Part shown: in pieces, positions 10,434 to 23,442 of the stretch
Position numbering within the stretch: the first letter of the stretch is position 1
Layout: the number at the start of each line of letters is the position of its first letter
Assembly: GCA_019307945.1 (NCBI GenBank)
Contig: JAFDIS010000001.1
Span: forward strand, 124,001 to 188,000
Direction: 5' to 3'
DNA length: 64,000 bases
From: Deltaproteobacteria bacterium
Lineage (GTDB): Bacteria > Desulfobacterota > DSM-4660 > Desulfatiglandales > Desulfatiglandaceae
Notes under the pieces: generated by a model
The model's input: only the letters and a program-made list of their open reading frames with translations
The model's database searches: none
Told to the model about the DNA's origin: nothing
Translations under genes and position numbers: made by a program

Positions 10434-10683
10434 CGGAACCACCCCTTCTTGGAAAAATCATTTGGACAGGGAACCTCATTGAACACCCTGGGCGCGCCCC
10501 GAAGCGGAGCCCCGCCCAGGAATCCTTCCCCGCGACGCAGACAAGGTAACGGTGCTCCTGCACATTTGCAAGCCGATTGTGGCTCCCCCGAATGGATTGA
10601 CACCCGCCACCCTTTCCATTAACCTTCCATGGATAATAAGGAACAAGCGGGGTTTCAAATTTTCAAAGAGAGGTCATCCTGCC

Positions 10684-11388
10684 ATGAAGAACGCGACGCT
10701 TTTCTTTTTTTGCCTGTTTTTAATCTTTCCAGCCTCACAAAACGCAGATGCCGACGAGGTGATCAAAGGGCATTATTGCTACACTTATGGAGACAGCGAA
10801 AGCCTGCGCGAGGCCAAGGCGTTGACGAGGACTCTGGCCGTACGGGACGCGATTGAATCTTACAAGGTGTTTGTCGAAACCGCCAGTACTGTGAACAATT
10901 TCGCACTGACCAATGATCTGGTTCAGATCATCAGCTCCGGTTATCTGAAAAACGTTAAGGTCCTGGAGCAGACCGTGAAGGGCAGGACCATCTGCATGAC
11001 GGTCCAGGCCGATGTAAATCCCGCCGAGATGGCGAAGGTGGTCAGAAAGGTGGCCAAGGAAAGGGCCGATCAGGTGGAGGCCCTCGGGGTGGATAACAAC
11101 GGATGCCTGAAGATCCTCAAGGTGAAAAAAAAGGACCAGGAGGTCAAGGTGGTGGTGAAGGTACTGAAGCGGACGGGCGCGCTGGACACCGCTTTCGAAC
11201 AAAACCAAAAACCTTGCTTCCGGGTGGGCATCGACTTCATGGATGAAGATGGAGACCCCATGAGCGGAGATTCGCAGTTCATTCATACCTCCAGGTCCGA
11301 AATGCTTCCCGGGGAGATCATCGCGGTCACATTTGAACTGCCGTGGGGGGCAAAAAGCTATAAGGCGTGGCTGCCCAAAGGTGAATGA
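10684..11388 (+). CDS. Secreted protein with LPP20/FlgT-N-like domain
   Basis: A 234-residue exported protein. The ATG at 10684 opens a signal peptide (about 1 to 22) and follows AGAGAGGT by 8 to 9 nt; the frame is open further upstream but without a start of comparable quality. The mature N-terminal half (about 24 to 130) has the pattern of LPP20 / FlgT N-terminal domains: an A-x-x-x-A-R-T-x-A-V-R-DAI helix, a turn with NNFALTNDLVQIISSGYLKNV, then V-x-x-x-x-T-x-x-V-x-A-DV. The C-terminal half is strand-rich with LPGEIIAVTFELPWG, like a small beta-sandwich. No lipobox cysteine is seen. It lies 340 bp before the Rnf operon, which has its own promoter, so a link is not implied. Function unknown. 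Confidence 0.65.
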   Translation: MKNATLFFFCLFLIFPASQNADADEVIKGHYCYTYGDSESLREAKALTRTLAVRDAIESYKVFVETASTVNNFALTNDLVQIISSGYLKNVKVLEQTVKGRTICMTVQADVNPAEMAKVVRKVAKERADQVEALGVDNNGCLKILKVKKKDQEVKVVVKVLKRTGALDTAFEQNQKPCFRVGIDFMDEDGDPMSGDSQFIHTSRSEMLPGEIIAVTFELPWGAKSYKAWLPKGE

Positions 11389-11727: not shown

Positions 11728-13068
11728 ATGAAAACAATCAGAGGGCTTCGAGTGCCCGGCCTCCAGGATGATGTGTCGCCGGCGGGATTCAGGCATCTAC
11801 CGGTGCCGGAAAGGGTTGTGCTTCCTCTCGAATTTTCCCTCGGCAAGGTGAATCCGGTGGTTGAGCCGGGCCAGCAAATCCGCGCCGGGGAGTATGTGGG
11901 CAGGGACGAAAACCAAATGATCCCACCGGTGCGTGCCTCCGTCTCAGGTGTGGTGACCGAAATCACTCCCTGGCCTTCGGCCGACGGCCAAAAGCTCCTG
12001 TCCGTGGTGATCGAGGCAAACGGCGACGAGGAGGTGGTGCGGCTGCCCCTGAACGGTAACGGCGAATCAAAGCCGGAATCACTGCTCAGACGAATCGCTG
12101 AGGCCGGGATTCGTGAGGTGGATGCCTATGCCTGGCCCCTTGCCGTGAGGCTGGCGCAACCGTCCCTCACCCCGCCGATCCTGCTGCCCTTCGCCCCGGC
12201 CTTGAGGAAACCCGTCCGGTATTTGATCATCAACGGGATGGATCGACAACCCGGTGTGAGTGTGCGAAGGAACGCGATCCTGGCAGAGGAAAAGGAACTG
12301 CTGGAGTCCGTTCCTCTCCTGAAACAAATCACGGCAGCCGAGACCACCCTCATTACCATCTACAAGGATCAAAAACTTCCCGCGGATTTCGAGCGTAAAG
12401 TCTCATCCCTTGGTGCAGAACTGCTCAAATGCCCCCGGACATACCCGCTCGCCCTCAAGCAAGGGCTCATTCCTTATGTGACGGGAGAAAAACTGCCCGG
12501 GCCCAACGACGATGCCCGGAGCGTGGGGGCCGTCATGCTAGATGTGACCACCGCGCAAAGAATCGCAGCGGCCTGCAAGGAAGGCTACCCGGCGGTGGAG
12601 ACGTCGGTGGAGATCATCGAACCCGCTCGAGGGGCCACCACCCATGTCAAGGTACGGGAAGGAACGCTTTTGGAAGATCTGCTTGCTCAGCTCCCCGATC
12701 GGCCCCAGAACCCGGCGAAAACGATTATCGGGGGGCCCTTTCTGGGCTATGCCCAGTATCAGTTTCGTATACCTCTCACCCAGCAGACGGACTCGGTGGT
12801 TTTCCAGAGCAAGGATGAATTGACCCATTTCGTCAATGCGCCTTGTATGAATTGCGGATTCTGCGTGCGCCATTGCCCTATGGGGCTCATGCCGGGCGAT
12901 CTGAGCCGTCTGTGCGAATACGGCCATTTTGAAGCAGCGGAAAAGGCAGGCCTTTTCCATTGTATCGAATGCGGGATCTGCAGCTATGTATGCCCGGCCC
13001 AGCGGCCCATGGTGCAGTTGCTTCGTTTTGGTAAAAGCGAAATGCTTGCCGTTCAGGAAGCAAGTTAA
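11728..13068 (+). CDS. rnfC: Rnf complex subunit RnfC (NADH/ferredoxin-side Fe-S flavoprotein)
   Basis: Cytoplasmic-face subunit of the ion-pumping ferredoxin:NAD+ oxidoreductase; known RnfC proteins bind NAD(H) and FMN. This one has 446 residues. An N-terminal lipoyl-like barrel with PPVRASVSGVVTEI (about 66 to 80) is followed by the Rossmann-like central region and a SLBB-type segment. Two [4Fe-4S] ferredoxin motifs lie near the C-terminus: C373, C376, C379, C383 and C412, C415, C418, C422. There is no long C-terminal repeat tail of the E. coli RsxC kind. It is the first gene of the operon, with rnfD starting 12 bp later. The gene order C-D-G-E-A-B matches that of Acetobacterium and many anaerobes. 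Confidence 0.95.
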   Translation: MKTIRGLRVPGLQDDVSPAGFRHLPVPERVVLPLEFSLGKVNPVVEPGQQIRAGEYVGRDENQMIPPVRASVSGVVTEITPWPSADGQKLLSVVIEANGDEEVVRLPLNGNGESKPESLLRRIAEAGIREVDAYAWPLAVRLAQPSLTPPILLPFAPALRKPVRYLIINGMDRQPGVSVRRNAILAEEKELLESVPLLKQITAAETTLITIYKDQKLPADFERKVSSLGAELLKCPRTYPLALKQGLIPYVTGEKLPGPNDDARSVGAVMLDVTTAQRIAAACKEGYPAVETSVEIIEPARGATTHVKVREGTLLEDLLAQLPDRPQNPAKTIIGGPFLGYAQYQFRIPLTQQTDSVVFQSKDELTHFVNAPCMNCGFCVRHCPMGLMPGDLSRLCEYGHFEAAEKAGLFHCIECGICSYVCPAQRPMVQLLRFGKSEMLAVQEAS

Positions 13069-13080
13069 AGGGAAGCGACG

Positions 13081-14046
13081 ATGAAACATCCCGAACTGAC
13101 AGTCTCCGTATCACCCCATATCCATTCGGGATATACGGTAGCTAGAATGATGTACGAAAACGCGGGCGCCCTTATCCCCGTGGCCCTTGCAGGGTGGTTC
13201 TTTTTCGGCTGGCCCGCCTTGAAAATCCTGGCTCTTTCAGCAGGCACGGCCCTTTTGGTGGAATGGGGCTGGGAAAAGCTATTCGGTCCCCCAGCAAATA
13301 TCAGGGACGGAAGCGCCCTGCTCACGGGACTTTTACTGGGCTGTATCCTGACCACGGAAGTCCCCTGGTGGATTCCGATCCTGGGGTCGCTCGTGGCCAT
13401 TACTGTGGGGCGCCACGCCTTCGGAGGAATGGGCAATCACCCGTTCAGCTCCGTGCTTGTGGGATGGGCCTTTCTGGAAATCAGTTACAAGGAAATCCTG
13501 GAGACTTACCCACTGGCGGAACCTCGTTTCTTGCTGGAAGCCAGCGAATTTTTTTCGGACCCGCCACTCATCGCCATGAAGGATGACCTGGAGTCGATCC
13601 TGGAAGTTCCATGGTCCGAACTCTTCTTCGGAAACGTCCCGGGCACCCTGGGAACGGTGTGTGTACTGGCGATCCTGCTGGGAGGGGCCTACCTTCTATA
13701 CCGCCGGATCATCACCTGGCACATCCCCCTGTCGTTCATCTTTTCCGCCTGGCTCTTTGCCTTGATCATGTGGCAGGTGGACCCTGAGGTCTATGCACCT
13801 CCCACTTTCCACATCCTGTCCGGGTGGATGATGTTTGGCGCGTTTTTCCTGGCCACGGAAAAAGGAACCGCTCCCGTCACCCCTTTGGGGATGATCTTTT
13901 ACGGAATCGGTTGCGGTGTACTCACCATCATCATCAGGACCTGGGGAATATATACGGAGGGTGTTCCGTTCGCCATACTGCTTATGAACGGGGCGACCCC
14001 GCTGCTGGATCGTATCAAACCCGGGACTGCAGGGAGGTCGAGATAA
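13081..14046 (+). CDS. rnfD: Rnf complex membrane subunit RnfD, without the usual flavinylation motif
   Basis: Integral membrane subunit of 321 residues with about eight to ten hydrophobic segments, related to NqrB. It has the family marks SPHIHSGYT near the start, RDGSALLTGLLLG (about 79 to 91) and GGMGNHPFSSVLVGWAF (about 117 to 133). Characterised RnfD proteins carry a covalent FMN on the Thr of an S/D-GAT motif in the loop after the last of these. Here that loop (about 140 to 195) reads LLEASEFFSDPPLIAMKDD and similar, with no GAT. A lone NGATP occurs instead close to the C-terminus (about 304), where other members have a different sequence. Identity is secure from order and similarity; the cofactor content is uncertain. 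Confidence 0.93.
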   Translation: MKHPELTVSVSPHIHSGYTVARMMYENAGALIPVALAGWFFFGWPALKILALSAGTALLVEWGWEKLFGPPANIRDGSALLTGLLLGCILTTEVPWWIPILGSLVAITVGRHAFGGMGNHPFSSVLVGWAFLEISYKEILETYPLAEPRFLLEASEFFSDPPLIAMKDDLESILEVPWSELFFGNVPGTLGTVCVLAILLGGAYLLYRRIITWHIPLSFIFSAWLFALIMWQVDPEVYAPPTFHILSGWMMFGAFFLATEKGTAPVTPLGMIFYGIGCGVLTIIIRTWGIYTEGVPFAILLMNGATPLLDRIKPGTAGRSR

Positions 14047-14047
14047 A

Positions 14048-14632
14048 TTGCGTGATTTGATCAAAATGGTGGTCGTACTGACCGTCATCTGCGCGTGCTC
14101 CGCTCTGGTGCTCTCCTTTGCCAACCAGGCGACGCGCGAACAACGGGAATACCAGGTGCTCAAGTACGTCAAGGAGCCTTCCATCAAAGCGGTGTTGACC
14201 GGTTATGACAACGACCCCATCAAGGACCGCGTCACATTGAAGATGGGGACGGACAAGAAGGGCAAACCGATCCGGAAAAATATCTTCCCCGCCAAGAAAG
14301 GCGGGAAGGTGATCGCGCTCGCCTATGGGTCAGCCGCTACGGGTTATCACGGTCTGATCGAGGTCATGGTGGGAATAGACATCAACGGCAAGATCACCGG
14401 TGTCAGCATTATGACCCATACCGAGACCCCTGGGCTCGGAGCCCGGGTGGTGGAACCCGCCTTCACGGGACAATTCAAAGGGCTGGTATTATCCGACGCG
14501 CTGAAGGTCAAAAAGGACGGCGGAAAAATCGATTCCGTCAGCGGTGCGACCTTTTCCAGCCGGGGTGTTGTTACGGCGGTCCGACAGGCCCTTGAGTCCT
14601 TCTCCAAGATCAAGAAGGAGGTCATCTCATGA
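14048..14632 (+). CDS. rnfG: Rnf complex subunit RnfG (covalent-FMN subunit)
   Basis: Periplasm-facing subunit of 194 residues: one N-terminal membrane helix (about 5 to 25) and an FMN-binding domain. The flavinylation site DSVSGATFSSRGV is present, with T168 expected to carry FMN by a phosphoester bond added by ApbE; I see no apbE in the window. HTETPGLGARV (about 124 to 134) is the second family motif. The start is TTG at 14048, two bases after the rnfD stop codon and about 10 nt after GGGAGG; no ATG or GTG in frame lies nearby. The 3' end overlaps rnfE by four bases (ATGA), which suggests translational coupling. Confidence 0.95.
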   Translation: MRDLIKMVVVLTVICACSALVLSFANQATREQREYQVLKYVKEPSIKAVLTGYDNDPIKDRVTLKMGTDKKGKPIRKNIFPAKKGGKVIALAYGSAATGYHGLIEVMVGIDINGKITGVSIMTHTETPGLGARVVEPAFTGQFKGLVLSDALKVKKDGGKIDSVSGATFSSRGVVTAVRQALESFSKIKKEVIS

Positions 14633-15234
14633 GCGTCGCCAGGGAGTTCACCAAGGGTCTCTGGGATGAAATCCCCCCATTCCGGCTGGTCCTTGGCCTT
14701 TGCCCCACGCTGGCGGTCACAACGGCCGCACAAAACGGCATGGGAATGGGCCTTGCCACCACGTTTGTTCTTCTGGGTTCCAACGTCCTCATATCGTTGC
14801 TGAGAAATGTGATTCCCAAAAAGGTGCGCATCGCGGCCTACATCGTGGTGATCGCCAGCTTCGTGGTCATCGTGGAATTGTCCATGCAGGCCTATTTCTA
14901 TCCACTGTACAAGGTGCTGGGGATCTTTATCCCCCTGATCGTGGTAAATTGCATCATCCTGGGCAGGGCCGAGGCCTTTGCCTCCAAGAACAAACTGTTG
15001 CCCTCCATAGCCGACGGACTGGGAATCGGCCTTGGGTTCACATTGTCGCTCACCTTCCTGGGGGCGGTCAGGGAATTAATCGGCGCAGGGACCTTGTTCG
15101 GCCGGTACGTGATGTGGGAGTCCTTCCAACCGCTCTCCATCATGGTCAAGGCCCCCGGCGCATTCGTCTGCCTAGGGTTGATCCTCTGCCTCATGAACTG
15201 GATCGGGGCCATGCAAAAAAGAAGGCAGGGATAG
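14629..15234 (+). CDS. rnfE: Rnf complex membrane subunit RnfE
   Basis: Integral membrane protein of 201 residues and six predicted helices, paired in the membrane with RnfA (the two are homologous and inverted, as NqrD and NqrE are). The family opening FTKGLWDEIPPFRLVLGLCPTLAV and the middle segment FIPLIVVNCIILGRAEAFAS are present; the cysteine in GLCPTLAV (about 25) and the one in VVNCIILG (about 109) match those that bind the intramembrane [2Fe-2S] cluster in structures of Rnf and Nqr. The start overlaps the rnfG stop. A GC-rich hairpin at 15234-15254 follows the stop codon, without a T-run. Confidence 0.96.
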   Translation: MSVAREFTKGLWDEIPPFRLVLGLCPTLAVTTAAQNGMGMGLATTFVLLGSNVLISLLRNVIPKKVRIAAYIVVIASFVVIVELSMQAYFYPLYKVLGIFIPLIVVNCIILGRAEAFASKNKLLPSIADGLGIGLGFTLSLTFLGAVRELIGAGTLFGRYVMWESFQPLSIMVKAPGAFVCLGLILCLMNWIGAMQKRRQG

Positions 15235-15298
15235 GCCCGCCGATTGGCGGGGCCTTGCTCGACGGCGGCTCAAAGCGCGGTGAAAGGAAACATCGATC

Positions 15299-15877
15299 AT
15301 GTCCGAATACCTGTTGCTTCTGGTCAGCGCAGTATTTGTGAACAACATCATTTTGGCCCGATACTTGGGCAATTGTCCGTTCCTGGGCGTCTCGAACCGA
15401 CTCGACACGGCCGTCGGGATGAGCATGGCCGTGGTATTTGTCATCACCCTGGCCAGTGCGGCCACGTGGATCGTTCAGACCTATGTCCTGACGCCTTTTG
15501 ACCTGGAATATCTGCAAACCATAGCTTTCATCCTGATCATAGCGACCCTCGTACAACTGGTGGAGATGTTCCTGCAGAAATCCATACCAACACTCTACAG
15601 GGCGCTGGGCATATTTCTGCCGCTTATCACCACCAATTGCGCCGTGCTGGGCGTGGCCGTGCTGGCCATCCAGAATGAATATGGTTTCGTCAAGACCATA
15701 TTTTTCGCTTTTGTCTCCAGTGTGGGCTACGGACTGGCGCTCATATTGCTGACCGGAATTCGGGAGCGATTGAATGTGGCGCCCATCCCGGTCCACCTGA
15801 AGGGGACTTCCATCGGACTCATCACGGTAGGGCTCTTGGCCCTTGCGTTCCTGGGTTTCGCTGGGATGGTCCATTGA
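15299..15877 (+). CDS. rnfA: Rnf complex membrane subunit RnfA
   Basis: Integral membrane protein of 192 residues with six helices, partner of RnfE. It has VNNIILARYLGNCPFLGVS near the start (cysteine about 25) and FLPLITTNCAVLGVAVL in the middle (cysteine about 112), the two cysteines that share the membrane [2Fe-2S] cluster with those of RnfE in known structures. It starts 64 bp after rnfE, the largest gap in the operon, and is followed by rnfB after 31 bp. Nothing is unusual in length or sequence. Confidence 0.96.
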   Translation: MSEYLLLLVSAVFVNNIILARYLGNCPFLGVSNRLDTAVGMSMAVVFVITLASAATWIVQTYVLTPFDLEYLQTIAFILIIATLVQLVEMFLQKSIPTLYRALGIFLPLITTNCAVLGVAVLAIQNEYGFVKTIFFAFVSSVGYGLALILLTGIRERLNVAPIPVHLKGTSIGLITVGLLALAFLGFAGMVH

Positions 15878-15908
15878 CGGATGAAGAAATGAACATCGGA
15901 GAGATCAC

Positions 15909-17954
15909 ATGCTCACAGCCATACTAGCCATAGGAGGCATGGGCCTGGTGGCGGGCATCGGCCTCGCCCTCGCTTCCAAGATCTTTTACGTGTATGTGGA
16001 CCCGATCGTGGTGGCCGTGGAAGAGGCCCTTCCCGGTGCCAATTGCGGGGGATGCGGATTCCCAGGCTGCAGCGGTGCGGCCGCAGCCATCGCCAAGGGA
16101 GATGCGCCCCCCAATATCTGTGTGGCGGGAGGCCCCTCGACCCATGCGGCGGTGGGGGAAATCATGGGAGTGGCCGTCATGGAGACCGAACCCGAATTCG
16201 CCCTGCCCGGGTGCAGCTACGGCTTCCACAAGGCGGACCTGAAGTTCCTCTATGACGGCTTCAATGACTGCAGAGCGGCATTGCTCCTGGACGGCGGTTC
16301 CAAGGTCTGTCCCATCGGGTGTCTCGGTCTCGGGACCTGTGCGAGGGCCTGTCCTTTCGGCGCCATCACCATGGGTGAGGATAATCTACCCGTGGTGAAC
16401 AAGAACCTGTGCACGGGATGCGGCACCTGCGAGCGCGTCTGCCCCAAGCATATCATCACCCTTACCTCCAATTCCAGGCGTATCCAGCGGGAATATACCA
16501 CGGAGCAATGCACGGCGCCCTGTCAAAGGGCTTGCCCCGCCGGCATCGACATCCCCGCTTACATACACGAGATAGCACTCGGCAACTACGAAGACGCAAT
16601 TCGCATTATCAAAGAATCCAACCCGTTTCTTAACGTGTGCGGTCGGATCTGCGTGGAACCCTGCGAGTTGGAATGCCGTCGCAACCTGGTAGACGAGCCG
16701 GTGGCCATCAACAACCTCAAGCGCTTTGTGGCTGATTATGAACGCAATTCCAAAAAGCGCATTCAGATCCCCAGGGCCCCCGAATCAGGCAAACAGGTGG
16801 CGGTGATAGGAGGGGGCGCAGAGGGGTTGACCTCCGCCTATTTTCTCAACCGCCTGGGCCACGATGTAAGATTGTATGAGTCCACGGAGAGCTTGGGCGG
16901 CCTGCTGCGAGCGGGCCTGCCGGCATCACGTCTTCCAAGGGATGTATTGGAATGGGAGATCGAGGGCATTCTGGCCGTGGGAATCGAAACTCAGACCGGG
17001 AAGGCCCTGGGACGGGATCTCACCCTTTCCTCCCTGTTCAAAGAAGGCTTTTCCGCTGTACTTGTGGCGATCGGCGGATGGGATACGTTCCTTTCCCAAG
17101 GTCGGCCCCAAGAAGCCCCTCTTCCCGGGATCCATCTCCTGGTGGACTATCTCCTGCGACATGAAGCGGGGTCAGGAAAGGCTCCTGGAGAACATGTGGT
17201 CATCGTAGGAGGGGGCGCAACCGCCCTGACGGCCGCCCATGCGTGCCTTGCCGGAGGCGCGCGGTCCGCCGCGGTGGTCACCAGGACTTCTCCGACCGAT
17301 GCTCTTTTCTCGGAGCAAGAAATCAAGACAGCGCAAGAGGCGGGAATCACTTTTTATCATGAAACGGCTCTCACCCGGATGATGGGTGAGGGAGACGCCT
17401 TGAAGCAGGTGGAACTCACCTCCATGAAAGGTGAAGGGGGCCAGAGCACGATCATATCCGCCGATACTCTGCTCGTGGGGGCTGGAAGATTTCCTGAATT
17501 GATCTATGTACCGAGGGAAATGGACGAGGAACGGCAGGAAGACACCGGAATCGCCTGGGAGACGGTGCTGCCCTACGCCGGACCCTTTTCCACCACGGAC
17601 ATCGGCCTTTTCAGGCCCGGAGAGGCAATAGGAGACTACAAGGCGGTGGTGGAGGCCATAGGAGCCGGGAGACGGGCGGCCAATTCCGCACATCGTCATC
17701 TTACCGGTGCCCCGGTTTCCCCACCCGAGGGCCTGATCCGGAGGGGAACACAGGTACTCAGCCTGACGGCCGTAGAATCGGTGGCCAAGGTTCCCCGGGA
17801 GAAGATGCCGGAGGTCCCGGAAGAGACGCGGATTGCGGATCCGGACGCAGAGATCGCCCTGGGCTACTCGGAAGCACAGGCCACGAAGGAAGCTTCCCGA
17901 TGTCTTCAGTGCGGCCTCATCTGCTATCGTCGGGAGGAAGGGGGGCTTCACTAG
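15909..17954 (+). CDS. rnfB: RnfB fused to a GltD/NfnB-like FAD-NAD(P) oxidoreductase
   Basis: A 681-residue fusion; ordinary RnfB has 190 to 330. Residues 1 to 25 form a membrane anchor. C46, C49, C54 and C71 make the N-terminal Fe-S motif of RnfB. C134, C138, C144, C148 and C168, C171, C174, C178 make two ferredoxin-type clusters. From about 195 the protein turns into the beta subunit of glutamate synthase / NfnB type: cysteines at 201, 205, 209 and again at 244, 248, 252, 256, an FAD loop (VAVIGGGAEGL, about 297) with ESTESLGGLLRAGLP, a second nucleotide fold (VVIVGGGATAL, about 430), a GD-x-x-x-x-x-x-x-AIGAGRRAA flavin segment (about 575), and a last CLQCGLIC. It probably feeds electrons between NAD(P)H and the Rnf ferredoxin chain; that is inference. 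Confidence 0.93.
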   Translation: MLTAILAIGGMGLVAGIGLALASKIFYVYVDPIVVAVEEALPGANCGGCGFPGCSGAAAAIAKGDAPPNICVAGGPSTHAAVGEIMGVAVMETEPEFALPGCSYGFHKADLKFLYDGFNDCRAALLLDGGSKVCPIGCLGLGTCARACPFGAITMGEDNLPVVNKNLCTGCGTCERVCPKHIITLTSNSRRIQREYTTEQCTAPCQRACPAGIDIPAYIHEIALGNYEDAIRIIKESNPFLNVCGRICVEPCELECRRNLVDEPVAINNLKRFVADYERNSKKRIQIPRAPESGKQVAVIGGGAEGLTSAYFLNRLGHDVRLYESTESLGGLLRAGLPASRLPRDVLEWEIEGILAVGIETQTGKALGRDLTLSSLFKEGFSAVLVAIGGWDTFLSQGRPQEAPLPGIHLLVDYLLRHEAGSGKAPGEHVVIVGGGATALTAAHACLAGGARSAAVVTRTSPTDALFSEQEIKTAQEAGITFYHETALTRMMGEGDALKQVELTSMKGEGGQSTIISADTLLVGAGRFPELIYVPREMDEERQEDTGIAWETVLPYAGPFSTTDIGLFRPGEAIGDYKAVVEAIGAGRRAANSAHRHLTGAPVSPPEGLIRRGTQVLSLTAVESVAKVPREKMPEVPEETRIADPDAEIALGYSEAQATKEASRCLQCGLICYRREEGGLH

Positions 17955-18432
17955 ACAGGATCCGGGTCATCCTGGGCTGATAGGCGAGGCCCTTTCGGAC
18001 CCGACGATCCAGCCGCCGGAGAACCAGGTAGCTTCCCACCAGGGCCCCGGCACCACTGACTACCGGCACAAAGGGACGGTGGCTGAAAGCACTGCCTACA
18101 GCGGCTCCCAGGACCAGGGCCACCACGGGGACAAAATAAACGAGTGCAGAAAGCTTGAGCAAAGACCGCGTGGGCACGCTGATCTCCACCGTATCGCCCA
18201 CGCGTGCTGCTAGGTCGTTGCGGATCTCCACGAGCATATCTCTTCCGTCCAGAGACTCACAAGAGTGTCGAGAATCGCAGGACGCGCAACAGGCGCTTTT
18301 CCGGATGCGAACCAACGCCCGGTCCATGATCACCTTCTCGACCACCCCCGCTTCGGTGAGAACGGGGGGCTCATCGGGCTGAAACGCCCCCTCTCCCTTA
18401 GGTCCCGTGCCCTTGAGTTGTTCAGACGCCAT
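17917..18432 (-). CDS. rseC: RseC/SoxR-reducer family membrane protein
   Basis: A 171-residue membrane protein. The ATG at 18432 is chosen because AAAGGAG lies 6 nt upstream. A soluble N-terminal part carries the cysteine cluster C48, C49, C52, C58 (ACCASCDSRHSC), as in RseC; an OB-like segment VGDTVEISVPTR follows, then two membrane helices (about 92 to 112 and 120 to 138) and a basic tail. In E. coli RseC works with the Rsx (Rnf-like) complex to keep SoxR reduced. Here the gene is convergent with rnfB and the two coding ends overlap by 38 bp, so they are not co-transcribed, but the pairing with Rnf is still suggestive. No soxR is seen. Confidence 0.88.
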   Translation of the reverse strand: MASEQLKGTGPKGEGAFQPDEPPVLTEAGVVEKVIMDRALVRIRKSACCASCDSRHSCESLDGRDMLVEIRNDLAARVGDTVEISVPTRSLLKLSALVYFVPVVALVLGAAVGSAFSHRPFVPVVSGAGALVGSYLVLRRLDRRVRKGLAYQPRMTRILSSEAPLPPDDSR

Positions 18433-18600
18433 CGGACTCCTTTCCGGGGAATGCCCTTTATTCAATTAAGGGCTGAAGGGCGCACCGTCCTGGGAGCCTC
18501 GCCCCCGGTTCCACTCCCGCGCTTGGAACCATAGGTGTGAGGAGGGCGATACGCCGACTTATGACACTCCCGAAATCCCATTAGGAGAAAACGGAAAAGG

Positions 18601-19834: not shown

Positions 19835-21637
19835 TCACCCGGCATCTCCCATGGGAACGTCTCTTGTGTTTCGCAGGGCCCTGAATCTCAGTTTGCGCCA
19901 CCTCTTCGAGGGATTGAGCAGCCTTTGCCGTTCCCGCCCGCTCAAAAGGCGCATACCCGGGACCGCCGGGGGGGCGGGACGCGTCAAGTCCAGGTCGGGC
20001 GTTGTTCCATCCATCCATCCCAGACCCGCCGCAGAACGACTCAGATGGCAGCTCATGCAGGAACGCCCCGCCGGGGAGACGGTGTGGGGCACATAAGGAG
20101 AAAAGGCCCACCCCTTTGACGTGAAATCACCGCGTATGGGGATGATACCGTCCAGGGCCGCATAACCCGCCTCGTCCACGTAAGACACTATGAACTGGTA
20201 AAGCGGCCTGACTATGCTGAAACGACCCTCATGATCCACACCGAGGGGCATCAGCTCCCACCTGCGATACCGCCATCCCAGGGACCAGGCGCCCTTTTTC
20301 AAGGTCCATGAAACCCGGTCCCTGGTGGCCGGCTGGAGGGGCTGGCGCATTCTTGATACCTCCAGCAGGACCTTTTCCACCACGGGATCTCCCTGCGCCT
20401 CCAGACCAAGCCATTTCAATGGATCGAGCCGATCTTCGCGGATGACGCTCAAGCCGTAGTCCTGAAAAGACCACTGAGCGTGGCAGGCGCTGCATCGGAC
20501 CCGCTCATGCTCCATCACCCCGTGGGCCACCACGTCCGCGTCGAACAGGGGCAGCCTGTGCAGGCGCTTCGCGCCCCTGGTTCGAAATCGAAACTCCGAT
20601 CCCCCGGCCACGACGCCCGGGATGGAAGGGTCCGGGCGTGCCCCCCTGAAGCCTCCGTGGCATCCCGAACAGGAAGTCTTCGGTACGGCCATCTGGTATC
20701 CGTAAACCTTTCCGTCTCCCATGACATCCGCCTTGCGGTGGCAGTCCACGCACCACAGGCCCCTTTCAGCGTGAATGTCTACGGCAAGGTGGTGGTAATC
20801 CAGGCCGTAAATCCTCTTTGAGGTCCCAGAAGCCCCCACGGGAGAACGATATCGCTCACTGAAATCATGCTGAAACAGTCCCATGTAATCCGCACCAACA
20901 TGATTCTGATTGTGACAGCGGAGGCACTGATCGTTGGGTATGGGCGACCGGAACACATGGCGGGCGGGATAGCCTGCCTTTTCCCGGTCCACGGCCGTGT
21001 CACTTCCACGGTAGCGTCCGTCGTCCTCATAGGGGACATGGCAGGCGGCACAACCGGAAGCACGGTAAAGGCCATCTCCCGTTGATCCCTCCGTGTGGAT
21101 ATGGCACCTCAGACATCGCCGCCTCAGGAAATCGTCCACGAGCTGGGCCGGATTTTCAGGATAGGCCATCGGGTCCGGCTCAGGCAGGGGCGCCAGGGGA
21201 CCGCTCAGACCGTAACGGGGCGGAGAAGCCTTTTCCTGGGCCCCCCAGAGATAGCGCGTCTGATTGATGATGCCTGCCACGGTACCGTGGAGTCCCTTTT
21301 CCACGATTCCGATCTCCTGCTCGTGGCAGGGCATACAAAAAGTGCGGACCCACCTGGGATCGGAGGGGTTCCGGACCACCTTGCGGTGGCCGTCCAACCA
21401 GCTGAGTGATCGATGCGCAGGCTGCAGGTGGCAGACCCCGCACTCGAAGTCATGATCAGGACCCATGGATTCGATCCGCGCATGGCATGAAAGGCATCGC
21501 CGATCCATGCGCGCGTCACGCACCTCCCCCCCGGCCCCGGTCGCCATAAAGAAACACACTGCGAAAACCGCCCACAGGGCCCCAAGCCGGTTCTGGCGGG
21601 CGCAAGCCCTTTTCATCGTGGAGCCTATCGAAGGCAC
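19835..21637 (-). CDS. Multihaem c-type cytochrome, 10 haem sites
   Basis: An exported protein of 600 residues. The GTG at 21637 is used because GGGAGG lies 7 nt before it; this start overlaps the previous cytochrome by 13 bp. A signal peptide covers about 8 to 38. Ten CxxCH motifs are seen: CLSCH, CGVCH, CMPCH, CLRCH, CAACH, CLRCH, CVDCH, CSGCH, CSACH and CMSCH. Nine lie in the first two thirds; a 130-residue haem-free, strand-rich stretch precedes the last. The block VDIHAERGLWCVDCH...VMGDGKVYG matches ADVHSRKADLDCIDCH...VMGDGVRHD of the upstream neighbour, so the two arose by duplication. A role in periplasmic electron transfer is inferred; no quinol-oxidising membrane partner is adjacent. 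Confidence 0.92.
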   Translation of the reverse strand: MPSIGSTMKRACARQNRLGALWAVFAVCFFMATGAGGEVRDARMDRRCLSCHARIESMGPDHDFECGVCHLQPAHRSLSWLDGHRKVVRNPSDPRWVRTFCMPCHEQEIGIVEKGLHGTVAGIINQTRYLWGAQEKASPPRYGLSGPLAPLPEPDPMAYPENPAQLVDDFLRRRCLRCHIHTEGSTGDGLYRASGCAACHVPYEDDGRYRGSDTAVDREKAGYPARHVFRSPIPNDQCLRCHNQNHVGADYMGLFQHDFSERYRSPVGASGTSKRIYGLDYHHLAVDIHAERGLWCVDCHRKADVMGDGKVYGYQMAVPKTSCSGCHGGFRGARPDPSIPGVVAGGSEFRFRTRGAKRLHRLPLFDADVVAHGVMEHERVRCSACHAQWSFQDYGLSVIREDRLDPLKWLGLEAQGDPVVEKVLLEVSRMRQPLQPATRDRVSWTLKKGAWSLGWRYRRWELMPLGVDHEGRFSIVRPLYQFIVSYVDEAGYAALDGIIPIRGDFTSKGWAFSPYVPHTVSPAGRSCMSCHLSRSAAGLGWMDGTTPDLDLTRPAPPAVPGMRLLSGRERQRLLNPSKRWRKLRFRALRNTRDVPMGDAG

Positions 21638-23442
21638 GGCAAGTCCTCCCCTCCCGCAAAACGACTCTTGCTCCGGGGAAAATCCCGGTAGATCGGATCG
21701 TCATAGCGCCGGTGGCACCCGGCGCATGCTCCCGCATCCAGGATGCGGCGGATTTCGGCATCGTCGAAGGGCCTCGGGTCTCCCGCAGCGCTTGCCACGC
21801 GGTTGCCTCTGCCCATGGCCGTAAATCCGTCCAGGGGAACTGACAGATTCAGACCCGAGCCTTTCGACCCGTAGGTGGGACGAAGAGAGGGACGGTGGCC
21901 CTTTCGGTGGAGGATTCCGCTTCCGAGTCCCAGCACCTTAGGATCACCGTGGCATTCGAGGCAGTCGCGAGACTTTTTGGAAGTGGTGTGAGGATCAAAG
22001 GCACCCAGGCTCAAGACCTGAAACCTGCGATCCGGCCGGGGCGACCCTTGTTCGTCAAAGCAGGAAAAAAAGACCTGACATGGTGCCACGGGATAGATCC
22101 GTTCAGGGCTCCTCACACCAAGTGCCGGCTTGGAAAACCTCATGAAGGATCGGGTTTCCTTCCACCTTCCCCGTATCTGTCCGCCGGTCAGCCAGTCGCG
22201 CTGGAATTCGTCCAGTCGATAGGCCAGATGGCACCCGTAGCATTGCGGCATCCAGGCACTGTGACAGGCCTGGCAGGAGACTCTTTCATGCCCGGGCAAT
22301 CCATGGTGTGGGGCTTCCATCCGGGAGGGATCCATCTCGAAGGGCTTTCCGTCCCTTTTACGATATAGAATTAGTTTGCCCGCTTCCTGACGGAGGTTGT
22401 ATACGGGCGTGCCCTTCTTGGTCCATCCCACGGGGGAGCCGTGGTTTGGAGGAATTTTCCTGTTGAGGGCCGTGAGCCTCCGGGCCTGATCGGCCTGAGC
22501 CCCCGCCGTTTTCATTTCAGGCAGATGGCACGCCTCGCAGGTGATATCCACCTGGGACACCATCTTATCATGCCGAACACCGTCCCCCATGACCCCTGTG
22601 GCGGTGTGACAATCGATACAGTCGAGGTCTGCTTTGCGCGAATGAACATCTGCGGGCAGTTCCAGAAAAAACCGCCTCCCGCTGAGCCTTCTTCGGCTCA
22701 GTTCCCCTCCTTCATATGGGGTTCCGTAGCCGGCCGACTCGAATCGCCCGAAATAGGATAGGCCGATCCGAGCGGAACGATTGTGGCACTTCACGCAGTT
22801 TTCAGAAGGAATCCGCGTCGTGATGGAGGGATGGCGAAGGGTTACACCATGTTGAACGACTTGGGCGCCTGATCCTCGGAGTTCCGGGGCATCGGGCACA
22901 TGACAATCACTGCACCCCCCCCCCCGAAGGCCCACCTCGCCGGGGCGATCCCCGCGCGGTTTCCAGAGGTGGCAGCCCCCGCACATCTTACGAAAATAAT
23001 CTTCCCCGAGGCCGTGGGGCTCCCACCTTCCCAGCAGATCCGTGATCTCCTTGCCGGAAATGCCCGAAGCTCCCGGCCAGTGATTCCCCAGAGCCGCCAG
23101 GATCCCCCGGTTGGTGGCCATAACGCTGTTTTTCACACGGTCCGCAACGCCAGCGTGACACAGGGGCTTTCCGCAGGTTTGCCCCACCACCCTCAAGTCC
23201 CCGGGGTTCTTTACCAGGGCCACATGCGCCCGTTCCTTTTCATTGGAATATGCATTACCCAGGTGGCAGGTATGGCACCCGAAGGCCTCCACGGGATGTG
23301 AAGGATCGGGATCGGTGGTCTCCTCATGGCAAAAAATGCAACCTTCCCGGGGGGGGACCGCGGGGATCTTTCTGGAACGCTCCTTGGCGACCACAAGAAT
23401 AGCCAGGAGCACCAGGGAAAGCATGGCTAGAGTTTTTTTCAT
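21625..23442 (-). CDS. Multihaem c-type cytochrome, 11 CxxCH plus one CX4CH
   Basis: A 605-residue exported protein. The N-terminus is MKKTLAMLSLVLLAILVVAKERSR in outline: a basic start and a helix with no clear cleavage site, so it may stay membrane-anchored. Haem motifs in order: CIFCH, CHTCH, C-GKPL-CH (a four-residue spacer), CGGCH, CSDCH, CVKCH, CIDCH, CEACH, CQACH, CYGCH, CLECH and CAGCH. CX4CH sites are known in tetrahaem cytochrome c3 and in NrfH-related proteins and are matured by ordinary system I or II machinery. It begins 27 bp after merR on the same strand and overlaps the 10-haem gene, suggesting one transcript. I see no strong ribosome-binding site before its ATG. Confidence 0.92.
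   Translation of the reverse strand: MKKTLAMLSLVLLAILVVAKERSRKIPAVPPREGCIFCHEETTDPDPSHPVEAFGCHTCHLGNAYSNEKERAHVALVKNPGDLRVVGQTCGKPLCHAGVADRVKNSVMATNRGILAALGNHWPGASGISGKEITDLLGRWEPHGLGEDYFRKMCGGCHLWKPRGDRPGEVGLRGGGCSDCHVPDAPELRGSGAQVVQHGVTLRHPSITTRIPSENCVKCHNRSARIGLSYFGRFESAGYGTPYEGGELSRRRLSGRRFFLELPADVHSRKADLDCIDCHTATGVMGDGVRHDKMVSQVDITCEACHLPEMKTAGAQADQARRLTALNRKIPPNHGSPVGWTKKGTPVYNLRQEAGKLILYRKRDGKPFEMDPSRMEAPHHGLPGHERVSCQACHSAWMPQCYGCHLAYRLDEFQRDWLTGGQIRGRWKETRSFMRFSKPALGVRSPERIYPVAPCQVFFSCFDEQGSPRPDRRFQVLSLGAFDPHTTSKKSRDCLECHGDPKVLGLGSGILHRKGHRPSLRPTYGSKGSGLNLSVPLDGFTAMGRGNRVASAAGDPRPFDDAEIRRILDAGACAGCHRRYDDPIYRDFPRSKSRFAGGEDLPCLR

What the first reader, a model, noticed from the sequence alone, without database searches (positions are those of the whole stretch)
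13081..14046. RnfD without the S/D-GAT flavinylation motif; NGATP near the C-terminus instead
The loop that bears the flavinylated Thr in NqrB and RnfD has no GAT here, whereas RnfG keeps SGAT (T168). A lone N-GAT-P lies about 17 residues from the C-terminus, in a position where I know no FMN. Either RnfD has lost its FMN, so the electron path differs, or the site has moved. The coincidence with the fused RnfB suggests a modified Rnf subtype.
Basis: partly seen in the sequence, partly recalled or inferred. Interest (0 to 1): 0.5.

Follow-up and report, generated by a model that had tools for sequence, protein, structure and literature searches.

The report
Rnf pump missing its return path
In this sulfite-reducing bacterium, and in a whole branch of its phylum, a sodium/proton-pumping electron carrier called Rnf has lost the two flavin sites that normally bring electrons back into the cell to NAD, so it probably hands them to something outside the membrane instead.

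Summary
RnfD (13081-14046) has Pro161 where the FMN-bearing Thr sits (A. woodii T156, C. tetanomorphum T153), and the rest of the FMN pocket is changed too. The C-terminal NGATP is chance: it replaces a conserved N-x-x-x-P-L motif, occurs in 1 of 67 variant and 0 of 109 canonical RnfDs, and lies on the cytoplasmic side.

The loss belongs to a larger change. In one clade (100/100 support) RnfC has also lost its FMN/NADH motif (GGAxFP in 0 of 66, against 98 of 102 canonical), while RnfG's flavinylation motif, the RnfA/E cysteines and both RnfC clusters remain. Many members carry RnfB fused to a GltD-like FAD domain. A class III multiheme cytochrome c gene lies directly upstream of rnfC in 39 of 61 testable variant loci and 0 of 93 canonical ones, though not in the window.

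The fused-RnfB/altered-RnfC type ('Rnf2', Tol2-type) was already reported. The RnfD loss, its cytochrome link, and inclusion of loci laid out like the Desulfovibrio operon appear new (10 searches, one open-access library).

Best reading: the outward leg (RnfB to RnfA/E to RnfG) works, the return to NAD is gone. No biochemistry was done.

The parts
11728..13068 (+). rnfC: two 4Fe-4S clusters kept (8 of 8 Cys); FMN/NADH motifs GxGGAxFP and NGAECEP replaced by REVDAYAWP and NGMDRQP
   Evidence: TIGR01945 232.9 bits, below its cut-off of 245.95; PF01512 40.6 bits, above its cut-off of 31.2
13081..14046 (+). rnfD without the FMN-bearing Thr
   Evidence: AF2 mean pLDDT 84, best PDB match 8ahx_D TMq 0.88
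13561..13563 (+). codon for Pro161, at the place of A. woodii T156 / C. tetanomorphum T153
13987..14001 (+). NGATP near the RnfD C-terminus: chance variant of the conserved N-x-x-x-P-L motif, not a flavin site
14048..14632 (+). rnfG: keeps SGAT; the only FMN_bind (PF04205) protein found in the genome
14629..15234 (+). rnfE, keeps its share of the cysteines of the RnfA/E iron-sulfur site
15299..15877 (+). rnfA, keeps its share of the cysteines of the RnfA/E iron-sulfur site
15909..17954 (+). rnfB fused to a GltD/NfnL-like module (Fer4_20 + FAD Rossmann + second Rossmann)

Best explanation
The operon encodes an Rnf2-type Rnf in which the return half of the canonical U-shaped electron path is broken at both flavins, the FMN of RnfD and the FMN/NAD site of RnfC. 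Shown from sequence: the RnfD FMN site and the RnfC FMN/NADH motif are gone; the RnfG flavin site, the RnfA/E cluster cysteines, the RnfB clusters and the RnfC clusters are kept. Inferred: electrons enter at RnfB (from ferredoxin, or from NAD(P)H through the fused FAD module where its nucleotide site is intact), cross through RnfA/E with ion pumping, and stop on the covalent FMN of RnfG at the periplasmic face. There they pass to a periplasmic acceptor: a class III cytochrome c encoded in the operon in most of the clade, an unidentified acceptor in the window's own subclade. On this reading it is not a ferredoxin:NAD+ oxidoreductase of the usual kind but an ion-pumping electron exporter, working like the cytochrome-linked Rnf proposed for Methanosarcina acetivorans.
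For: On 176 deduplicated RnfDs, with 'variant' defined by loss of Ct R130: T153 is T in 5 of 67 variant and 109 of 109 canonical; E185 is E in 3 of 67 and 108 of 109; G237 is G in 9 of 66 and 108 of 109, with W or Y in 33 of 66, so bulky side chains often replace the glycine that contacts the flavin. RnfC GGAxFP is in 0 of 66 variant and 98 of 102 canonical. RnfG keeps [ST]GA[ST] in 65 of 66. RnfA/E cluster cysteines were examined only in the first data set, 37 variant rows, and are kept in 37 of 37 at three columns and 36 of 37 at one. The variant is one clade inside canonical Rnf: UFBoot/SH-aLRT 100/100, 100% of 200 bootstrap trees, 60 rows; on 116 rows the R130 state changes once and Thr presence 3 times. 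A same-strand ORF with 3 or more CXXCH lies directly upstream of rnfC in 39 of 61 testable variant loci and 0 of 93 canonical ones; the five tested are class III cytochromes. Own genome: one PF03116 protein, one FMN_bind protein (this RnfG), one ApbE. Ion pumping at RnfA/E on the B-to-G leg is the model of PMC11889175 (passages). M. acetivorans Rnf does not reduce NAD(P) and is linked to a multiheme cytochrome c (PMC4023990, passages).
Against: RnfC keeps all 8 cluster Cys in 66 of 66 variants, and the riboflavin ligands of RnfD are mostly kept (N124 58 of 66; D248 D or E 66 of 66), which would be odd if the return leg were dead. The window and its nearest relatives have no cytochrome gene upstream of rnfC: 22 of 61 testable variants lack one. 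In the window the riboflavin ligands themselves are changed, to S and E. In D. [quoted passage not shown] PMC11887813 (passages) describes Rnf2 as sodium-pumping and linking the NADH pool with the ferredoxin and NADP pools. The variant clade is one evolutionary event, so the co-loss of the RnfC and RnfD sites is not statistically independent.
Confidence: 0.55

Rival explanations
1. The NAD(P) site has only moved: electrons still make the U-turn. The FMN of RnfG reaches riboflavin in RnfD directly, RnfC's clusters pass electrons to the FAD module fused to RnfB, and NAD(P)+ is reduced there.
For: RnfC cysteines kept in 66 of 66 variants and riboflavin ligands mostly kept; FAD motif intact in 41 of 41 fused RnfBs; a similar dipping of the extracytosolic flavin into a Thr-less RnfD-like subunit has been proposed (PMC11334425, passages).
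Against: Twelve variants have an unfused RnfB; 7 of 41 fused RnfBs have lost the glycine motif of the second Rossmann fold and only 10 of 41 carry an RR[ST]R motif of NADP-binding type (that reading of the motif is recalled); the vacated pocket tends to be filled by W/Y; the cytochrome genes are unexplained.
Confidence: 0.27
2. RnfD now reduces or oxidises menaquinone at the riboflavin, as NqrB does with ubiquinone, with RnfC acting as a structural or electron-relay subunit.
For: Riboflavin ligands partly kept; NqrA shows that an RnfC can lose its FMN/NAD site and stay in a quinone-reducing complex (PMC4014512, passages).
Against: No quinone-site residue was tested here; without FMN in RnfD there is no link from RnfG to riboflavin; NqrB keeps its FMN (PMC12174285, passages).
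Confidence: 0.08
3. RnfD still binds FMN, either non-covalently in the old pocket or covalently elsewhere.
For: Five of 67 variants still have Thr at the place, one in a near-canonical TEST context (L133).
Against: No [ST]xA[TS] motif anywhere in the window's RnfD and NGATP unique to it; the other named positions of the pocket changed together.
Confidence: 0.07
4. The changes are decay, misassembly or sequencing error.
For: The assembly is a draft in 185 contigs.
Against: All six genes are open, HMM scores are high, and the same changes recur in dozens of genomes with conserved operon order; Rnf2 proteins are made in D. multivorans (PMC5109826, passages).
Confidence: 0.01

Closest known systems
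Rnf2 / Desulfobacula toluolica Tol2-type Rnf of Desulfobacteraceae (PMC5109826, PMC11887813; passages read)
   Same: RnfB of about 700 aa with a nucleotide-binding module; RnfC altered at the NADH site; same six subunits; sulfate-reducing relatives in the same phylum.
   Different: The passages read do not mention RnfD, its FMN, or a cytochrome gene. The window's RnfC still matches PF01512 above cut-off. PMC11887813 places Desulfovibrionaceae with Rnf1, whereas loci here with the layout published for D. alaskensis (decaheme, CDGEAB, ApbE) fall in the variant clade.
Canonical Rnf (Rnf1), ferredoxin:NAD+ oxidoreductase (A. woodii 9eri, C. tetanomorphum 7zc6, A. vinelandii 8ahx)
   Same: All six subunits, RnfA/E cysteines, RnfG covalent-FMN motif, RnfC clusters, RnfD fold.
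   Different: No RnfD FMN threonine or pocket, no RnfC FMN/NADH motif, RnfB fused to a GltD-like module.
Methanosarcina acetivorans Rnf with multiheme cytochrome c (PMC4023990; passages read)
   Same: Proposed ending of the electron path at RnfG and cytochrome c, no NAD(P) use; cytochrome gene in the operon in much of the variant clade.
   Different: Archaeal; its RnfB, RnfC and RnfD sequences were not compared here; the window's operon has no cytochrome gene.
Two-subunit Nqr/Rnf-like systems (PMC8238504, PMC11334425; passages read)
   Same: RnfD/NqrB-like subunit without the flavinylated Thr; one-way path from NAD(P)H to an extracytosolic flavin proposed.
   Different: Two genes only, with a PF00175 domain on the RnfD-like subunit, and no RnfA/E/B/C.
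Na+-NQR, with NqrA as an RnfC that lost its cofactors (PMC4014512; passages read)
   Same: Loss of the FMN/NAD site in the RnfC homologue and recruitment of another NAD(P)H module.
   Different: NqrB keeps its FMN and NqrA lost the clusters too; here the reverse.

Membership tests
RnfD (PF03116 / TIGR01946) | Profile match over the curated cut-off | tested here: met
   311.7 vs 27.7 bits and 259.7 vs 207.05 bits
RnfD (PF03116 / TIGR01946) | Fold | tested here: met
   AF2 mean pLDDT 84.0; Foldseek 8ahx_D TMq 0.88
RnfD (PF03116 / TIGR01946) | Covalent-FMN threonine and its pocket | tested here: not met
   T to P, R to W, E to T, S to P, G to W
RnfD (PF03116 / TIGR01946) | Riboflavin ligands N124 and D248 (Ct numbering) | tested here: inconclusive
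   S and E in the window; N in 58 of 66 and D or E in 66 of 66 variants
Canonical Rnf (ferredoxin:NAD+ oxidoreductase) | Six rnf genes in one operon | tested here: met
   rnfCDGEAB at 11728-17954
Canonical Rnf (ferredoxin:NAD+ oxidoreductase) | RnfC FMN/NADH motif GGAxFP | tested here: not met
   DAYAWP in the window; 0 of 66 variants against 98 of 102 canonical
Canonical Rnf (ferredoxin:NAD+ oxidoreductase) | Ferredoxin:NAD+ activity coupled to ion transport | not testable with these tools
   needs biochemistry
Rnf2 / Tol2-type Rnf | RnfB of about 700 aa with nucleotide-binding domain | tested here: met
   681 aa, PF14691 and PF07992 over cut-off
[quoted passage not shown]
   motif lost and no SLBB match listed, but PF01512 still matches at 40.6 bits, above its cut-off of 31.2
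Rnf2 / Tol2-type Rnf | Same clade as the D. toluolica complex | not tested
   no named D. toluolica sequence was fetched
Cytochrome-linked Rnf (M. acetivorans type) | Multiheme cytochrome c gene in the operon | tested here: not met
   none upstream of rnfC in the window; 39 of 61 testable variants have one
Two-subunit Nqr/Rnf-like system | PF00175 domain on the RnfD-like subunit and no RnfA/E | tested here: not met

The most novel reading that the evidence does not exclude
A large, single-origin branch of Rnf, including complexes with the operon layout published for Desulfovibrio, is not a ferredoxin:NAD+ oxidoreductase at all but an ion-pumping exporter that delivers cytoplasmic electrons to periplasmic class III cytochromes; the return half of the Rnf circuit was dismantled at RnfC and RnfD.
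Probability: 0.4. Interest if true: 0.82.

Novelty: new variant of a known kind. Interest (0 to 1): 0.62.

Why it matters
Rnf genes in sulfate reducers are routinely read as ferredoxin:NAD+ pumps in energy budgets. It also gives natural RnfD proteins without the FMN threonine (most often Tyr, the same exchange as in the NqrB-T236Y mutant listed in the PDB, entry 9ud3, title seen) in which to ask whether pumping needs the RnfD leg at all.

Tried and rejected
Moved FMN site at NGATP: rejected. Fused RnfB as the cause or strict partner of the RnfD loss: rejected, since 12 variants are unfused and one unfused locus, L133, still has Thr. A simple picture in which NAD(P)H always enters at the fused module: weakened, because 7 of 41 fused RnfBs have lost the second Rossmann glycine motif. 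A dead RnfC: not supported, because all cluster Cys are kept. Exceptions kept in the counts: L220 and L224 (RnfC motif absent but RnfD FMN site intact); L120 and L238 have RnfC cut at contig ends. Rows dropped as duplicates before the count: L072, L207, L208, L223. L067 was placed among the variants by hand because its R130 position reads X, and its RnfB contains masked bases. A search for papers on NqrB T236Y found none, so nothing is claimed about that mutant's activity. The Tol2 genome paper that first described the type was not read. The first phylogeny (68 rows) was superseded.

Counts are of the loci looked at, not frequencies in nature. One reference (A. woodii) was used for RnfC numbering and two for RnfD.

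Literature: 10 searches of the open-access library and passages only of eleven papers; none of the passages read mentions loss of the RnfD threonine in Rnf2.

Full report
Observation. The window's RnfD is intact and over the curated cut-offs, models well (mean pLDDT 84.0) and matches solved RnfD structures (8ahx_D TMq 0.88). Where A. woodii has T156 and C. tetanomorphum T153, the residues that carry FMN (PMC11889175 and PMC9588780, passages), it has Pro161. The other FMN contacts named in PMC9588780 are changed as well. NGATP is chance: the position is a conserved N-x-x-x-P-L stretch, xGAT occurs there only in the window (1 of 67 variant, 0 of 109 canonical), and 17% of shuffles contain GAT.

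What goes with it. RnfC of the same operon lacks the FMN/NADH motif (GGATFP in A. woodii; DAYAWP here) and NGAECEP (NGMDRQP here), but keeps both 4Fe-4S motifs. That these two stretches bind FMN and NADH is recalled from the NuoF/RnfC family. RnfB is 681 aa: RnfB, then a Fer4_20 and FAD-Rossmann module like GltD/NfnL. RnfG keeps SGAT and is the only FMN_bind protein found in the genome, which has one ApbE, one PF03116 protein and DsrA.

Relatives. I looked at 40 stretches from 61 relatives, 80 named loci and 60 stretches from a draw of 395 genomes of the phylum, of which 152 matched the RnfG model. In the 61 relatives, 41 show a match covering RnfB and the fused module (my count of the printed rows, from query residue 10 or before to 654 or after). 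After removing four duplicates, 176 RnfDs split cleanly by the FMN contact R130: 67 variant, 109 canonical (one variant placed by hand). The FMN threonine is present in 5 of 67 against 109 of 109; RnfC GGAxFP in 0 of 66 against 98 of 102; of the four canonical exceptions two are cut by contig ends and two (L220, L224) are real. RnfC cluster cysteines are kept in 66 of 66 and 102 of 102. RnfG [ST]GA[ST] is kept in 65 of 66 variants.

History. On trees of RnfD+E+A with the loop and R130 columns removed, the variants form one clade nested in canonical Rnf (100/100, 100% of 200 bootstrap trees, 60 rows; 64 rows, SH-aLRT 100). The Thr state changes three times and RnfB fusion five, so these vary inside the clade: L133 has lost the RnfC motif but keeps Thr, its sister L092 has Pro, both with unfused RnfB. 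The place is now Y in 27, P in 19 and something else in the rest, as expected after release from constraint.

Cytochromes. A same-strand ORF with three or more CXXCH motifs lies directly upstream of rnfC in 39 of 61 testable variant loci (4, 5, 8 or 10 motifs; distances -193 to +381 bases to the stop-to-stop rnfC ORF) and in 0 of 93 canonical ones. Five tested examples are class III cytochromes c. By parsimony this trait changes three times. The window's subclade lacks it; two large multiheme cytochromes (10 and 11 CXXCH) lie downstream on the other strand at 19835-23442. L183-L185 have decaheme-rnfCDGEAB, and in L184 the next gene is an ApbE by Pfam (in L183 by eye only): the layout published for D. 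alaskensis, where dhcA is the first gene of rnfCDGEABF (PMC4215793, passages; that rnfF is an ApbE-type gene is recalled).

Mechanism. In the solved complexes electrons run ferredoxin, RnfB, RnfA/E, RnfG FMN, RnfD FMN, riboflavin, RnfC clusters, RnfC FMN, NAD (PMC9588780, PMC11889175, PMC12174285, passages). The variant keeps everything up to RnfG and loses the first and last flavins of the return leg. The simplest reading is a one-way conduit that ends at RnfG and, in most of the clade, at a cytochrome; pumping at RnfA/E would survive. Against it: the RnfC clusters and most riboflavin ligands are still under constraint, so part of the return leg may have a job, perhaps with the FAD module of RnfB. 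That module's FAD motif is intact in 41 of 41, but 7 of 41 have lost the second Rossmann glycine motif, so NAD(P)H cannot be assumed to be its partner everywhere. I put the one-way reading at 0.55 and the moved-NAD-site reading at 0.27.

What is known. The large RnfB and altered RnfC were reported for D. toluolica Tol2, and D. multivorans makes both kinds (PMC5109826, passages; the original paper was not read). 'Rnf2' is described as core to Desulfobacteraceae and constitutively made (PMC11887813, passages). I found no mention of the RnfD loss or of the cytochrome association of Rnf2 in ten searches and the passages read. Loss of the RnfD-type Thr is known in two-gene Nqr/Rnf-like systems (PMC11334425, passages). 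So the window is a member of a partly described Rnf type; the RnfD finding, its clade-wide extent and the cytochrome link are what is added.

Noticed in passing
window 19835-21637 (-) and 21625-23442 (-): Two neighbouring large multiheme c-type cytochromes (10 and 11 CXXCH), weakly like cytochrome c7/c3 and MtrC/MtrF domains; a similar pair lies downstream of the rnf operon in L033.
   Followed up: partly
window 17917-18465 (-): RseC/MucC family gene (PF04246), convergent with and overlapping the 3' end of rnfB; similar-looking genes follow rnfB or rnfA in L032, L034 and L054 (by eye).
   Followed up: no
L220 9728-11320 (+) and L224 2819-4213 (-): Another arrangement (rnfG-E-A-B-C-D) in which RnfC lacks GGAxFP while RnfD keeps the whole FMN site; a separate loss of the RnfC site.
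   Followed up: partly
fused RnfB rows (e.g. L042, L043, L045, L050, L060, L065, L069): Second Rossmann glycine motif destroyed in 7 of 41 with FAD motif intact; many others read GGGAEGL instead of GGGPAGL in the FAD motif.
   Followed up: partly
G032:C1:2190309-2192357, G015:C20:33225-35273, G049:C127:3504-5558 and others: Second RnfB-GltD copies at about 42% identity that are not next to the RnfD hits: possible orphan RnfB-GltD proteins.
   Followed up: no
RnfE alignment columns 305 and 311: Extra cysteines common in variant RnfE: 30 of 37 and 13 of 37, against 11 of 75 and 0 of 75 canonical.
   Followed up: no
window 10552-11388 (+): 278-aa ORF upstream of rnfC with no Pfam or NCBIfam match.
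   Followed up: no
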